Shown: positions 432 through 53,959 of the stretch, piece after piece | How the letters are laid out: each line of letters opens with the position of its first letter | How positions within the stretch are numbered: the first letter of the stretch is position 1 | Assembly: GCA_023212695.1 (NCBI GenBank) | Contig: JALCCG010000139.1 | Location: 1-56,669, forward strand | Direction: 5' to 3' | DNA length: 56,669 nucleotides | DNA from: Sporisorium sorghi | Taxonomy: Eukaryota; Basidiomycota; Ustilaginomycetes; Ustilaginales; Ustilaginaceae | Position numbers and translations under genes: made by a program | The notes under the pieces: generated by a model | What the model saw: the letters and a program-made list of their open reading frames with translations, nothing else | The model's database searches: none | What the model was told of the DNA's origin: nothing

Positions 432-859
432 TCAGCACCAGGTGTAGCTGTCGGGACGGCCTATAGATGCCGGTGCAGGTCTTGACCCAACCAGGAACAT
501 ACAATCCGGTCGATACCATCCTCCATCAGGGTCGCGCTTGTAGCAGGCGATGGCCATAACCGACACGCCTTTGAGCGTGGAATTCTTTCCGTTGAGTGTG
601 ACAGTCTGGTCAAGTCTCCACATGTTTTCGATGGTCATGAACCTTTCCACCGTGCCAATATGCGCAGGGGCCAGAGCTGCGCAACTACTCTGGCAGCAAG
701 ACTCATGCCGTCATGAGTATGCTCGAGTTCTGCGAGCAGCAGCGCGAGTCGAACGTCGTGGTGAATCATCGGTGTGCTCGTCGGAATCGTTGGCTTCTTG
801 ACGTTGAGGAGCACGTCTTTGTCGCTTGTTGTTGGGCAGATCGTGATGATCTCGAGCAA
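432..859 (-). pseudogene. Coding-like remnant, two frames, unidentified
   Basis: On the minus strand two overlapping frames (859 to 635, and about 690 to 432) read as ordinary protein-like sequence. They connect only if one frame change near 660-690 is allowed; the second frame then reads through HIGTVERF and GWYRPDC. This lies directly downstream of the dioxygenase-like remnant on the same strand, so it may be more of the same degraded gene or a separate relic. No family was recognised, and the assignment as coding rests only on open frames. Confidence 0.25.
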
Positions 860-36602: not shown

Positions 36603-39600
36603 ATGGCTGTCCTTTCATTCTATCACTTTTGCTGCTACCATGTCAACGACGGCAACGACAAACCTCCTCTGAACGGCTCTTCATCACTCCCAGGGACTGT
36701 TCGGCTCGCGTCGCTGCAACCGTTGCTGGCTTCCCACACGCCGTCGGAAGCCATGCCGACCATGTCCAGGCTGTCAACGCTTCGGTCGTTCCGAACGGGA
36801 TGGAGCTCGCTCGATCATCACACGCCGTGCTGTAAAGGTCCAGCAGCAGTAGCCAGCGCGAATCCATCGGCACGGCTCCTGTCTCCTCCAGCCTGGCCAC
36901 GCCTCTCGCCCGCGACGCTGCGAGCCTATGCCACCACTCCATCTGGTGTCAAGACGACCTATCCAAGCACAGCACCACCAGCTAGCGAGAACAGTCAACA
37001 CCACAGCAACGCCAAGCTGGGCAAGGAGAGAGATCAGGGCTACCTCGCATTCACAAAGTCGAGCCTGTTCAAGCTCACGCTCCCGCTGCAACCGCCAAGC
37101 TCGGATCCGCACTCTCCCTCTTCCAAATATTCTTCGCCACGAGCCAGAGCGGAACGCAAAGACGACTCGCAACGGTCCGAAATTGAAGAGATCGAACGGA
37201 AGAGCGTCTCGGAAAGCCCGTGGGAACGAGCCGCAGAGACTCCCGGTCCACCCGTCTCGCAGGTCAACCATCGACCGCATTCGCATCTCCATGGTCCGGA
37301 GAATGGCGAGCCTGCAGACGTCGAGGCTGACGAGTACGATGCCGATGCTCCAGCACATAGCGTCGTCTTTCTCCTGCACAGTGCTCAGCCGCTGAGCTAT
37401 ATTGCCAATCTCATCCGTGCAGAAGGCCCCAGTCCGGAACCGAGCAAGCACCAGATCGAGCAGGAGAAACAGGAGCGATTGCGCAGCAAGCAGGGCGATG
37501 ACGACGGCGACGACGACGACAAGGACAAGGTCAGCGTGCCTGTCGGTCCGCGATCCTCTCCCGAGCGCAAGGACAAGCGCGTCAACCTCACCAAGGAGCA
37601 GCTCGAGATGCGCGAAATGCTCCTCCGTCAAGGTTTCCTCGACCCGCTCGGAGATCCGCCCATCTCGTTCCATACACGCGCCGCCGACGGCAAGCGGTGG
37701 TCGCCCGCGACGGGTATTGGCGACTTTCTGCGCGATGCTGCACGTATAGGCTCGTTCGTCATCCGCATCGGCGACCGCAACGTCTACGTGACAGTGCCCT
37801 CCTTTGAGGACCGTACACGCTTCCTCCGTGCTAGCCTTTATGCAAAAACTGAGCAGATCGAGAGGCTCGTCCACCTCAAGGCTGAGTGCGACCGTATCGC
37901 GCATTCGGGCACCAAACGGCTTTCCTTCGCTGGTGTGGGCATCTTGAGCGCCTGGTGGGGCTCCGTCGCTTTCCTGACCTTTGGCACCTCACTCGGCTGG
38001 GACGTCATGGAGCCCGTCACCTACCTCACCGGTCTCGGCACCATCCTGGGCGGCTACATCTGGTTCCTCATCCACAACCGCGAGGTTTCTTATCGCGCAG
38101 TGCTCAACGAGACCACTTCGAGGCGACAGCAGAAGCAGTATATCGAAAAGGGCTTCAACATCGAGCGCTATCAGGAGCTCATCGAAGAGGTCAAAGACCT
38201 GCGCAAGACGATCAAGAAGGTTGCTGAAGACTACGACCTCGAATGGGACCAGGGGGAGACCAAGGCGGGAAAGCAGAACAAAAAGGCGCTCAAGATCATT
38301 CGCAAGCAGGAAGAGGCCAGCTACCGCTCAAAGAGGGAGGATGTGCGCGAGGATGAGGAGGGCGATGCGGATGATAAGGATGACAAGGGGGTTGCGAGTC
38401 CTTCGCACGAGGCTGAGGATAAGGATGGAGATGGTCAGCCGGATAATGTGCAGGCTGACAACTCGAAGCTCAAGGTGCGCAAGAAGAAGGCGAATGGCAG
38501 CGAGGCCAGGCGTCACTTTTCCACTTCGGCGCGATGCAGCACCGCTCGAGCAGGCTCAGCGTCGATTCGTGGTATCCGACACTACAGCAGCAGCAGCACA
38601 AGGTGCAACACATCAGCTGCAAAGGACGTCGTCGACTCTTCGACTAAGTCGTTGCAGACGTCGGCCAGCGCGTCTACAGCTCCCACCAAAAAGCCCTTCA
38701 GCATCAAGCCATACCTCGCACTCAGCCGCATCGACAAGCCCATCGGCACCTGGCTGCTGTACTGGCCGTGTGCCTGGTCCATCGTCCTGGCCTCGCACAC
38801 GCTCGGCCTATCCTACACCACACCGCTCTTCTACACTGTGCTCTTTGGTGTCGGCGCCATCGTCATGCGCGGTGCAGGCTGCACCATCAACGACATGTGG
38901 GACGTCAAGATGGACCGCATGGTCGAGCGCACCAAAACCCGCCCGCTCGCCGCCGGCGACATTACGCAGTTCCAGGCGCTCTGCTTTCTCGGCGTGCAGC
39001 TGAGTGCCGGCCTGGCGGTGCTGGTCAACCTGAACCTGTATAGCATCGTGCTCGGCGCGTGCTCGCTCGGGGTGGTGGTGTTGTATCCGTTGATGAAGCG
39101 CGTGACGTACTGGCCGCAGCTGGTGCTCGGGTTTGCGTTCAACTGGGGGGCGATGCTGGGCTGGTCGGCGGTGGCGGGGGTGGTGGATTGGGGCGTGGTG
39201 CTGCCGCTGTATGCTGGGTCGATTTGTTGGACGCTGGTGTACGATACGATCTATGCGCATCAGGACAAGACGGACGACGTGCATGCAGGCGTCAAGTCGA
39301 CCGCGCTGCTGTTTGGCGAGCGCACCAAGCCGGTGCTCTCGGCGTTCTCGGCCAGCACAGTGGGCTTGTTCGCGTACAGCGCATCCCGCGCAGTACCCCC
39401 GGCGATCGGTGCCGCGCCCACAGCAGCTGAGGTGCTGAATCCGGCCCACAGCGCGACGTGCGTCGGCGACCTCGTCCTCTCGCCTGCGTCCCTGGACACG
39501 CTCGCTGCCGCTTCGCCCGTGCTGGATACGCTGTTGCACCACCATCCGTTCTTCTGCATCGCTCTGGCGGGTGCGGCGAGCCACCTGGCATGGCAGATCC

Positions 39601-39761
39601 GAAGCGTCCAGCTTGACGATCGACCGGATTGCTGGCGCAAGTTTTGCTCCAACACCACTTTCGGCTGGATCGTCGTCTCGGGTTTGGTGGCTGACTATGC
39701 CGCTTGGCTCTACCTCGACAAACAGCAGGCAAAGAAGGAGGACGCCGAGGCTCAAAAGTGA
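36603..39761 (+). CDS. MCU-COQ2: Fusion of mitochondrial calcium uniporter (MCU) and 4-hydroxybenzoate polyprenyltransferase (COQ2)
   Basis: One uninterrupted 1052-codon frame carries two inner-membrane proteins. The start may be the Met at 36603 or, better as a presequence, those at 36753/36762 ([11 protein letters not shown]); R107-A-Y-A fits a processing site. Residues 251-545 are MCU: an N-terminal domain ([23 protein letters not shown]), two membrane spans around the selectivity motif WDVMEP (D467, E470), and a final coiled coil. Residues 697-1052 are COQ2: [16 protein letters not shown], the first Asp-rich motif [11 protein letters not shown] (N763, D764, D767, D771), the second [13 protein letters not shown] (D881, D888, D891, D892), and about eight membrane spans. 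The joining segment is acidic at 575-620, then basic and free of Asp/Glu at 635-674, with RRHF-S and IRHY-S sites typical of mitochondrial processing. No Met occurs from residue 471 to 755 except inside MCU, so COQ2 has no start of its own. Both halves look intact. Confidence 0.9.
38505..38624 (+). other. Internal presequence-like segment between MCU and COQ2
   Basis: Residues 635-674 contain seven Arg, about seventeen Ser/Thr and no Asp or Glu. They include R637-H-F-S640 and R659-H-Y-S662, which match the R-3 cleavage pattern (R-x-[F/Y] before S) of mitochondrial processing followed by Icp55. This is what a separate COQ2 presequence would look like. Cleavage is an inference. Confidence 0.55.
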
Positions 39762-39933: not shown

Positions 39934-41112
39934 CTAAGCGGTGGAAGTTGTCGTTGTCGCCGCGGGTTTCGGCTGGTTCTCAGCAGCAAACGCAGCAAAG
40001 AAGCCCTGGCCCTGCTTCCACTCCTGGAACCCTTTCTGCAGCCTGACACTCAGGCTCTCTATCGAATCCAGAGCGGGCCGCACGTCGAGCACGAACTCGG
40101 GCTCGTCCTTGTCCGGGTCGTCGGGCACGCTGTAATAGTCAATAACATAGCGCACCTCTTTGCCCTGCTGGTCGGGTCTGCGGACGATCCAGTCGTGGCG
40201 GTCGAACGGCGGCTCGGTGCTGAACGTGTTCGGCATGATCTGGCCCAGCCAGCCAAACAGGCGCGCCTTGGGCGTGAGCGTGCCCGGCTTGCCCTGGAAG
40301 CGCGCGAGTTCGGCGCGCGTCGAGTCGGCGCCGGCGAGCTTCTCCCACTCGAGCACCTCGAGCCACGCCTGCTCGTTGAGAAAGTTGTGCACGAGCACCA
40401 TGGTCTCGACGTGCTCCTCGGGGGTCTCCCAGCCCTTGCGGACGAGGGCGTTGTAGAATTGTTGCGGGGAAGGGTACTCCCACTTTTCGGTCTGCTCTTG
40501 CGAGGGCTGGCTGCTGTCGTGCTTGACGGGGCAGGCAGAGGGCGCGTCGTAGGGCGAGGCGCCGGGCGCGGCGGAGGTGCGCGAACGTGGGATGGACGAG
40601 ACGACGCGCTCGGTGGATAGTTCGATTTTTTGCTCGGGTGCCTGCGCCTGGCTGAAGCTGGGCATCATGTTGAGCGGATTGAGCGTCGACGACCATGGCG
40701 TGGAGGATGAAGAGGCAGACGACGAGGGCGCCATCGAGCCCGTGCTGGCCGAAGAGGAAGAGGACTGGCCAGATTTGGCTGCGAGATACTTGTCACGGTC
40801 CTCGTGAGGGATGGGACACTGCCCTCCGGACGAGGCCACCATCTTGGGCGGCGGCGAAGGCTTAGGTGGCGCTGGCGCTGATGGTGCGCTGCTGCTGCCA
40901 CTCGCGTGCATCGGACAGCCCGGAGGCGGTGTAGAGGAGGAAGAGGCACCTGCTGACGACGAGCCATCAGTCATGGAGCGGAGAATCTCGTCGCGATGTT
41001 GGGAGAGCTTGTAGGCCATGAGCGCGGCCACCGCCTGCTGATTGTCAGCATTCGGTCTCTGCTCCGAGGCAGCCTGAGCGCGGATGGCGCGCACGATCTC
41101 GGCAGGGTTCAT
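39934..41112 (-). CDS. CYC3: Holocytochrome c synthase (cytochrome c heme lyase)
   Basis: Joins heme covalently to apocytochrome c in the mitochondrial intermembrane space. 392 residues, no intron. Three Cys-Pro heme-regulatory motifs are visible: C66-P (GCPMH), C99-P (QCPIPH) and C194-P (ACPVKH). The conserved catalytic core starts at about 211: WEYPSPQQFYNALVRKGWETP, then MVLVHNFLNEQAWLEVLEWE with H242 at the position of the heme-ligating His, then PFDRHDWIVRRP and VRYVIDYY. The first 200 residues, rich in Ser/Pro/Ala, are longer than in yeast or human enzymes and separate the CP motifs widely. No cleavable presequence is seen, as expected for this family. Convergent with the MCU-COQ2 gene (172 bases between stops). 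Confidence 0.95.
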   Translation of the reverse strand: MNPAEIVRAIRAQAASEQRPNADNQQAVAALMAYKLSQHRDEILRSMTDGSSSAGASSSSTPPPGCPMHASGSSSAPSAPAPPKPSPPPKMVASSGGQCPIPHEDRDKYLAAKSGQSSSSSASTGSMAPSSSASSSSTPWSSTLNPLNMMPSFSQAQAPEQKIELSTERVVSSIPRSRTSAAPGASPYDAPSACPVKHDSSQPSQEQTEKWEYPSPQQFYNALVRKGWETPEEHVETMVLVHNFLNEQAWLEVLEWEKLAGADSTRAELARFQGKPGTLTPKARLFGWLGQIMPNTFSTEPPFDRHDWIVRRPDQQGKEVRYVIDYYSVPDDPDKDEPEFVLDVRPALDSIESLSVRLQKGFQEWKQGQGFFAAFAAENQPKPAATTTTSTA

Positions 41113-52837: not shown

Positions 52838-53959
52838 TCACTTGGATCGCTTGTAGACCTTTTCGAGGAAGGAGCGGAAGACGTCGCGACGCAGGCCTTG
52901 CGACTCGGGGAGGTTGTTGATGAGCGTGTTGATCTGTTCGTACGACTCGGCCTCGTACTTTTGGAAGCGGGTGCGAAGGTCGATGTTGGGCTGGTTGAAG
53001 ACGTCCTTGACGCGCTTCTCACATTCCGGGTCCTTCTTTCCATAGTTGGCGTCGAGGATCTGACGCTGCTCAGGGGTAGCGTTCTGGAGAGCGACGTTGA
53101 TGTTCCAGGAGCACTTGTTGTCGAAAATGTCGGTGCCGATCTTGCCAATCTGTTCCGGAGTGCCGTAGCAGTCGAGGAAGTCGTCCTGGACCTGGAAGTA
53201 CTCGCCCATGGGAAGCAGAATGTCGAGCGCCTGCTTGTAGAGCGACTCGTCGGTGACGCCGGCCATGCGCATGGCGAGGGCGACGGGGAGGTAGAACGAG
53301 TAGAAGGCGGTCTTGTAGACGACGATGAGGTGGTGCTTTTGCAGCGAAAACTTGGACAGGTCCACCGAGTCCTCCGGGGCGGTGATGAGGTCGATGAGCT
53401 GACCCAACTCGGTCTGGAAGGTGACGTCGTGGAAGAGTTCGAGCAGCATGCCGTAGTAGGGTTCGGAGCGGAAGTGTTTCTTGAGCAAAAAGTAGATGGC
53501 GGCTTCCAACATGAAGGCGTCGTTGATGGCAATGTTGCCGACGCCCTCGACGCGATACCAGCAGGGCTGGCCTCTGCGGGTTACGCTGGCATCCATCATG
53601 TCATCGGCAACGAGGAAGTAGGCCTGGAGTAGCTCGATGCACCAGCCGAGAATGGCAGCCTTGAGGTATTCGGGCTCGGTGAGCTGACGCGAGAGCTTGC
53701 CAGTAGCAGCATCGGTGCAGAGGAGGATCTCGACCGTGTCAACGACGGAAAGACCGCGGTTGAGCTTGCCACCGGGCGTGTTGTAGTCGAGGTTGCGACG
53801 GAACCAGTCGATGGCCTCGGCAGGCATGTTTTCCGAGGCGAGGTAGGCGGTGAGTTCCTCGACGAGGAGGGGGAAGACGGCCTCGAAGCGTTTGCGCTTC
53901 TGGATCTTGAGCTGGGCCTTGTCGGCCAGAGCCTGTGTGTCGACGTTGGAAGCGGACAT
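52838..53959 (-). CDS. ERG20: Farnesyl diphosphate synthase
   Basis: Condenses IPP with DMAPP and then GPP to FPP, the branch point to sterols, dolichol, heme A and ubiquinone side chains. The start at 53959 (MSASNVD) gives 373 residues, the usual 350-375; the frame extends further upstream to 54220 but without family similarity. The first Asp-rich motif is DDMMD (119-123), preceded by Y114-F115, aromatic residues at the chain-length-determining positions that fix the product at C15. RRGQPCW follows, then the second motif DDFLD (259-263). Conserved QDDFLDCYG and KIGTDI blocks are present. A MITE-like inverted repeat lies 180 bases upstream. Confidence 0.97.
   Translation of the reverse strand: MSASNVDTQALADKAQLKIQKRKRFEAVFPLLVEELTAYLASENMPAEAIDWFRRNLDYNTPGGKLNRGLSVVDTVEILLCTDAATGKLSRQLTEPEYLKAAILGWCIELLQAYFLVADDMMDASVTRRGQPCWYRVEGVGNIAINDAFMLEAAIYFLLKKHFRSEPYYGMLLELFHDVTFQTELGQLIDLITAPEDSVDLSKFSLQKHHLIVVYKTAFYSFYLPVALAMRMAGVTDESLYKQALDILLPMGEYFQVQDDFLDCYGTPEQIGKIGTDIFDNKCSWNINVALQNATPEQRQILDANYGKKDPECEKRVKDVFNQPNIDLRTRFQKYEAESYEQINTLINNLPESQGLRRDVFRSFLEKVYKRSK

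What the first reader, a model, noticed from the sequence alone, without database searches (positions are those of the whole stretch)
36603..39761. MCU and COQ2 encoded as one polypeptide, with an internal presequence-like segment
The sequence shows one open frame of 1052 codons with a complete MCU (WDVMEP between two membrane spans) followed by a complete COQ2 (both Asp-rich motifs). No stop and no Met lies between the MCU coiled coil and the first COQ2 span, so COQ2 cannot start by itself on this mRNA. At the junction an acidic linker is followed by 40 residues (635-674) with seven Arg, many Ser/Thr and no acidic residue, with RHF-S and RHY-S processing-type sites. Inference: a gene fusion that kept the downstream presequence, giving a precursor cut in the matrix into a calcium channel and a ubiquinone-synthesis enzyme, made in equal amounts. 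I know of no described MCU-COQ2 fusion, but I could not search.
Basis: partly seen in the sequence, partly recalled or inferred. Interest (0 to 1): 0.88.

Follow-up and report, generated by a model that had tools for sequence, protein, structure and literature searches.

The report
Calcium channel fused to ubiquinone enzyme
In smut fungi a single gene encodes, end to end, the mitochondrial calcium-uniporter protein and a key coenzyme-Q enzyme, with what looks like a second mitochondrial import signal kept between them, so the long protein is probably cut in two inside the mitochondrion.

Summary
One uninterrupted 1052-codon frame (36603-39761, +) carries an MCU domain and a COQ2-type UbiA enzyme, with no Met between residues 469 and 755. 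It is no local artefact: 20 further database proteins have the same order, among them named Ustilaginales and Violaceomyces. In other Ustilaginomycotina the two were found as separate proteins, and 10 of 33 standalone MCUs inspected end in the D-x-x-G-x-PD acidic tail seen in the fusions, so the join lies just after the old MCU C-terminus. All 21 junctions hold at least one R-x-[FYL]-[ST] site (36 seen, 3.6 expected from shuffles) although the junction varies about as much as the N-terminal presequence; R659 is the only residue invariant between 615 and 702. No consensus intron donor was seen there.

Best reading: a composite mitochondrial precursor of the Arg5,6 / Rsm22-Cox11 kind, made 1:1 and cut at the internal sites by the mitochondrial processing peptidase. 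Cleavage is inferred, not shown. Three junctions (P0014, P0017, P0021) lack the strict presequence-like window, and 9 of 21 have a Met somewhere in the stretch, 3 of them before the first site. I found no paper describing this fusion in the searches run.

The parts
36603..39761 (+). whole open frame, MCU-COQ2 fusion, 1052 codons plus stop
   Evidence: 20 database proteins of the same order
36762..36929 (+). probable N-terminal presequence (residues 54-109; start Met51 or Met54), ending in R107-A-Y109|A110-T
   Evidence: N-terminal comparison; R-x-[YFH]-A-T type site in 17 of 21 fusions
36930..38309 (+). MCU body: N-terminal domain, two membrane spans, coiled coil (residues 110-569)
   Evidence: Pfam MCU 402-526; MCU structures by sequence and fold
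37998..38015 (+). WDVMEP selectivity-filter motif (466-471)
38310..38444 (+). acidic MCU tail ending in DGDGQPD (residues 570-614)
   Evidence: DGDGxPD near the C-terminus of 5 of 33 standalone MCUs inspected, D[AG][DN]GxPD in 10 of 33
38445..38708 (+). junction (residues 615-702): basic, Ser/Thr-rich, predicted disordered; presequence-like part 635-674
   Evidence: pLDDT under 50 over 590-692
38511..38525 (+). first internal processing-type site R637-H-F|S640-T
   Evidence: 22 residues after the DGDGQPD tail in 16 of 21
38577..38591 (+). second internal processing-type site R659-H-Y|S662-S; R659 invariant in the 21-row alignment
38709..39758 (+). COQ2 (4-hydroxybenzoate polyprenyltransferase), residues 703-1052
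   Evidence: Pfam UbiA; NCBIfam TIGR01474 335 bits, cut-off 275.45; UbiA folds
38889..38915 (+). first Asp-rich motif NDMWDVKMD (763-771)
39240..39278 (+). second Asp-rich motif [13 protein letters not shown] (880-892)

Best explanation
A composite mitochondrial precursor. In an ancestor of Ustilaginales and Violaceomycetales the MCU gene lost its stop and joined COQ2, which kept its presequence but lost its start Met. One mRNA gives one precursor that is imported by the N-terminal presequence. The C-terminus of MCU and the N-terminus of COQ2 both face the matrix (recalled topology), so the junction is exposed there and the mitochondrial processing peptidase (with Icp55 trimming) cuts at the R-x-F/Y|S sites near 640 and 662, giving a separate MCU and a separate COQ2. 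Shown: one frame, conservation, site conservation, domain identity. Inferred: the order of events at the fusion, single mRNA, import, cleavage, separate products.
For: One frame in raw DNA. Both domains in one protein in 20 relatives, with 18 distinct junction lengths among 21 sequences. MCU tail like that of standalone MCUs (10 of 33). R-x-[FYL]-[ST] motifs: 36 in 21 junctions against 3.58 by shuffling, at least one in each; two sites 18-24 residues apart in 14 of 21. Junction mean pairwise identity 0.32 per column, like the N-terminal presequence (0.27), against 0.69 for the MCU tail and 0.88-0.92 for the cores, yet R659 is invariant. Acid-free 24-residue windows with 4 or more Arg lie in the junction in 18 of 21 proteins, in the MCU body in 1 and in COQ2 in 0. 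No GTRNGT donor in 38150-38760. Precedents of internal MPP cutting: PMC8847149 section 6.
Against: No RNA, proteome or N-terminal data. P0014, P0017 and P0021 have no strict presequence-like window in the junction, and the acid-free runs of P0011 and P0014 are no longer than chance (483 and 559 of 1000 shuffles). The same window test rings at the N-terminal presequence itself in only 6 of 21 (some of these N-termini are truncated), so it is a weak detector. Codon usage does not favour frame 0 over frame 2 in the window 641-680. The relatives are not independent, so the motif excess is not a probability. No trained presequence predictor was available. Standalone COQ2s show this site type in only 18 of 46 scored (72 of 118 not scored).
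Confidence: 0.72

Rival explanations
1. The polypeptide stays whole: a bifunctional inner-membrane protein, so that each MCU tetramer carries four COQ2 enzymes, and the basic junction is only a flexible tether.
For: Topology permits it (recalled); the model shows two folded parts joined by a disordered linker; the fusion is kept in every named Ustilaginales species found with a long hit.
Against: A tether has no evident need to keep R-x-F/Y-S sites and a basic stretch while everything around them changes.
Confidence: 0.17
2. COQ2 is also, or only, made from its own shorter transcript, by an internal promoter with an intron, a near-cognate start, or, in some species, a Met in the junction.
For: The +1 frame has ATGs and is open through the junction; 9 of 21 fusions have a Met between the MCU YDLEW motif and COQ2, 3 of them (P0002, P0013, P0017) before the first site. 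Frame 0 is not favoured by codon usage over 641-680.
Against: 12 of 21, this one included, have no such Met; no GTRNGT donor in the junction, only two loose GTRNG sites and one CTRAY; the first Met in this COQ2 (755) lies in span 2.
Confidence: 0.09
3. Assembly or gene-model artefact that joins two neighbouring genes.
For: The assembly G000 is mixed, with contigs that I read as bacterial. Many other COQ2 joins (with helicase, kinase or mannosyltransferase domains and others) look like merged gene models.
Against: The frame is open in raw DNA without any intron, and the same join with conserved flanks is in 20 other database proteins.
Confidence: 0.02

Closest known systems
Arg5,6 of Saccharomyces cerevisiae; Rsm22-Cox11 and Etp1 of Schizosaccharomyces pombe (composite mitochondrial precursors)
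   Same: Two mitochondrial proteins in one frame, with internal targeting-like stretch and MPP-type sites between them (PMC8847149, section 6 read; the primary paper, Friedl et al. 2020, not seen).
   Different: Other partners. Here both halves are multi-span inner-membrane proteins, one of an ion-channel family and one a ubiquinone enzyme; cleavage is shown for Arg5,6 and not here.
Fungal-specific MCU paralogue (MCUP)
   Same: MCU domain and WDVMEP; closest solved relatives include two named as fungal. PMC7423614 (section 6 read) says most fungi keep only this paralogue.
   Different: Here it is the first half of a longer protein. I did not place it in that paper's tree, so its paralogue status is inferred.
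COQ2 / UbiA 4-hydroxybenzoate polyprenyltransferase
   Same: TIGR01474 above cut-off, both Asp-rich motifs.
   Different: No start codon of its own in this species; the presequence-like stretch is internal.

Membership tests
Composite mitochondrial precursor (Arg5,6 type) | two complete mitochondrial proteins in one frame | tested here: met
   mitochondrial location itself is by family, not tested
Composite mitochondrial precursor (Arg5,6 type) | internal MPP-type motif at the junction | tested here: met
   at least one R-x-[FYL]-[ST] in 21 of 21 junctions
Composite mitochondrial precursor (Arg5,6 type) | internal targeting-like stretch by a trained predictor | not testable with these tools
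   only composition, charge and hydrophobic moment were measured
Composite mitochondrial precursor (Arg5,6 type) | cleavage into two proteins in mitochondria | not testable with these tools
   needs an import assay or blot
MCU (PF04678) | Pfam score over the curated cut-off | tested here: met
   98.1 against 30.8 bits
MCU (PF04678) | WDxxEP filter between two spans | tested here: met
   WDVMEP at 466; helices 401-461 and 466-491, the second at modest confidence
MCU (PF04678) | calcium conduction | not testable with these tools
   needs a transport assay
COQ2 (TIGR01474) | equivalog score over the cut-off | tested here: met
   335 against 275.45 bits
COQ2 (TIGR01474) | two Asp-rich motifs | tested here: met
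   763-771 and 880-892
COQ2 (TIGR01474) | prenyl transfer to 4-hydroxybenzoate | not testable with these tools
   needs an enzyme assay or complementation

The most novel reading that the evidence does not exclude
Cleavage is partial or regulated, so that smut mitochondria hold an uncut MCU-COQ2 complex in which an MCU-type channel tetramer carries ubiquinone-synthesis enzymes, physically coupling ion entry to ubiquinone production; and the fusion to an essential gene has kept the fungal MCU from being lost in this clade.
Probability: 0.1. Interest if true: 0.85.

Novelty: new variant of a known kind. Interest (0 to 1): 0.62.

Why it matters
It is a conserved fusion of a calcium-uniporter family protein with an essential ubiquinone enzyme, carried under COQ2 or polyprenyltransferase names in several records, which hides the MCU half. 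PMC7423614 reports that most fungi have MCU without MICU or EMRE, and calls MCU in fungi without calcium uptake a paradox; a smut MCU that cannot be lost without losing COQ2 gives a handle on it. It also adds a case where both products are multi-span inner-membrane proteins, a harder import problem than the soluble Arg5,6, and 21 natural junctions on which rules of internal MPP cutting can be tested.

Tried and rejected
Assembly error and merged gene model: rejected (raw open frame, 20 relatives). A junction intron: no GTRNGT donor in 38150-38760; two loose GTRNG sites and one CTRAY site. Split genes in a close relative: P0175 (MCU) and P0059 (COQ2) come from contigs of the same length (170187); P0175 leaves the MCU frame after DQGETKA and P0059 starts after COQ2 span 1, so a frameshift or sequence error is likely, but I could not see the DNA. 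P0057, P0058, P0064 and P0066 also start after span 1 and are fragments; P0066 falls in the fused clade and its missing N-terminus leaves open whether it is fused. MCU-only long hits: P0023 groups with Microstromatales-type MCUs, P0038 and P0039 lie outside the 20-row fused clade on a long branch; all three are unnamed. A second COQ2 in the assembly: the six other UbiA matches score as heme o synthase (two), UbiA-like/MqnP-like (two), MenA-like and phosphoribosyltransferase in NCBIfam, and I read their contigs as bacterial from G+C and neighbours. No fungal COX10 was among the seven UbiA matches, so assembly or search is not exhaustive and single copy is not proven; chaperonin and actin searches did find many matches. 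One MCU match in the assembly. EMRE search: no match, but its control also failed, so it says nothing. COQ2 tree: with all 51 rows the fused set needs 2 changes, P0066 counted as unfused; after I left out three long-branch rows (P0152, P0071, P0083) the 21 fusions plus P0066 are one side of a branch, support 92, not starred. MCU tree: one change, support only 20.

Full report
The observation. The + strand frame 36603-39761 is open for 1052 codons. Pfam finds MCU at residues 402-526 and UbiA at 720-941, both well above cut-off. Comparison with Sporisorium proteins puts the likely start at Met51 or Met54; the first hundred codons show little coding bias.

Identity of the halves. By sequence the MCU half matches 6dnf, 6dt0, 6d7w and 6c5w best; one search names two of these as fungal (Cyphellophora, N. 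fischeri), the other two are fungal by recall. The COQ2 half passes the NCBIfam equivalog TIGR01474. A model from a 58-row alignment has pLDDT of 89 or more in most blocks of the COQ2 half, 80-93 in the MCU matrix parts, 48-70 around the second MCU span, and under 50 over 590-692 and 1-138. Foldseek finds MCUs and UbiA enzymes (24 matches with E of 0.001 or less). Mean pLDDT is 69 and pTM 0.49, so the relative placement of the halves is not informative.

How widespread. A search over residues 330-1052 gave 55 proteins; 20 (P0002-P0021) have both domains over 97-100% of the query. Twelve bear names: Sporisorium reilianum, S. scitamineum, S. graminicola, Kalmanozyma, Pseudozyma hubeiensis, Ustilago trichophora, U. 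bromivora, U. loliicola, Melanopsichium, Moesziomyces, Testicularia (Ustilaginales) and Violaceomyces (Violaceomycetales); eight do not. Of the other 35, three are MCU only (P0023, P0038, P0039) and the rest carry UbiA without MCU. The COQ2-half search (best 120 of 615 listed) and the MCU-half search (best 120 of 217 listed) gave separate proteins elsewhere in the subphylum: in Sympodiomycopsis kandeliae (Exobasidiomycetes) MCU and COQ2 lie on contigs of different length (4498260 and 3765011); COQ2 without MCU in Tilletia, Tilletiaria, Exobasidium, Ceraceosorus guamensis and Malassezia; MCU without UbiA in Ceraceosorus bombacis, Acaromyces and Parajaminaea. No intact standalone COQ2 of a fused-clade species was listed; the short hits are fragments. 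Ustilago maydis did not appear by name; PMC3410928 (passages seen) lists an MCU homologue in it, and the passages do not mention COQ2. No Urocystidales sequence was seen by name.

Where the join lies. Of 33 standalone MCUs inspected, 10 end in an acidic tail with D[AG][DN]GxPD 5-19 residues before their end (5 of 33 with DGDGxPD); 20 of 21 fusions have DGDGQPD, and the first R-x-[FYL]-[ST] site follows 22 residues later in 16 of 21. So MCU seems complete and COQ2 brought an N-terminal extension with it. Trees agree with one origin but do not prove it.

The junction. Its columns are about as variable as the N-terminal presequence (mean pairwise identity 0.32 and 0.27) and far more so than the MCU tail (0.69), the MCU spans and coiled coil (0.92) or COQ2 699-940 (0.88). 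Yet each of 21 junctions keeps an R-x-[FYL]-[ST] site, 36 in all against 3.58 in shuffles, two of them 18-24 residues apart in 14 of 21. R659 is the only invariant residue between 615 and 702; R637 and T641 are at 90% or more, as are Q617, D619, K622, L623, K624, K628, K629, K697 and F699, which flank the variable part. The N-terminal presequence ends in the like site R-x-[YFH]-A-T in 17 of 21 (of the four without, P0005 and P0015 have truncated N-termini, P0014 and P0021 do not match). This is the -3R consensus R-X-F/Y/L|A/S of PMC8847149 section 6. A 22nd junction, in fragment P0207, has both sites. Against: P0014, P0017 and P0021 lack a strict acid-free Arg-rich window in the junction, P0011 and P0014 have ordinary acid-free runs, and the same test rings at the N-terminus in only 6 of 21.

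Ways round a single precursor. No in-frame Met in 12 of 21; nine have one, before the first site in P0002, P0013 and P0017 and after it in six. No consensus donor in this junction. Codon usage favours frame 0 over the other forward frames in windows from 541 to 660, and ties or loses to frame 2 in 641-680; in 661-700 the two measures disagree. RNA is the missing test.

Mechanism. From established topology of the two families (recalled, not tested here), the MCU C-terminus and the COQ2 N-terminus face the matrix, where MPP acts. PMC8847149 reports that MPP makes Arg5 and Arg6 from one precursor and that like signals were found in silico in Etp1, Rsm22-Cox11, Atp25 and others. For Etp1, PMC7140478 (passages) names the partners as Yah1 and Arh1; from recall they are Cox15 and a ferredoxin; I did not resolve this. 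I commit to matrix cleavage, at about 0.72.

Print. No paper held all of MCU, COQ2, fusion, Ustilago or calcium uniporter, hydroxybenzoate polyprenyltransferase, fused. Six hold Ustilago maydis and calcium uniporter; I saw passages of two, neither on this. One holds MCU, COQ2 and coenzyme Q biosynthesis, a ferroptosis review (listing and abstract start only). Searches listed none whose title or abstract start tells of it; 15 of 56 were listed. PMC7423614: abstract, passages and section 6 seen. Subscription papers and supplements were not searched.

Noticed in passing
39934-41112 (-): Cytochrome c/c1 heme lyase gene, convergent with the fusion, the two frames ending about 170 bases apart.
   Followed up: no
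52838-53959 (-): Farnesyl diphosphate synthase by best solved relatives, an enzyme upstream of the ubiquinone side chain, 13 kb from the COQ2 half; probably coincidence.
   Followed up: partly
G000 contigs C30, C111, C309, C331, C460 (L007-L010, L012, L013): The window's assembly holds contigs that I read as bacterial (heme o synthase, menaquinone-type genes), so it seems a mixed assembly; no fungal COX10 was among the UbiA matches.
   Followed up: partly
P0180 (Ceraceosorus bombacis) and P0187: MCU-only proteins named 'related to coq2' and '4-hydroxybenzoate polyprenyltransferase' in the database, apparently names carried over from the smut fusion.
   Followed up: no
P0192 (Adiantum nelumboides): A protein in a fern record groups with the MCU of Acaromyces and unnamed relatives, suggesting fungal contamination of that record.
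   Followed up: no
P0175 and P0059: In one unnamed record (two proteins from contigs of equal length) the fusion is broken into two frames; the MCU part leaves frame in the tail.
   Followed up: partly
P0027, P0040, P0041 (Sanghuangporus); P0026, P0029, P0049, P0159 (Grifola, Multifurca, Steccherinum, Lyophyllum): COQ2 joined to an amidase domain in three records of one genus, and to PF02115 in four records of four genera: repeated merged gene models of neighbours, or further fusions.
   Followed up: no
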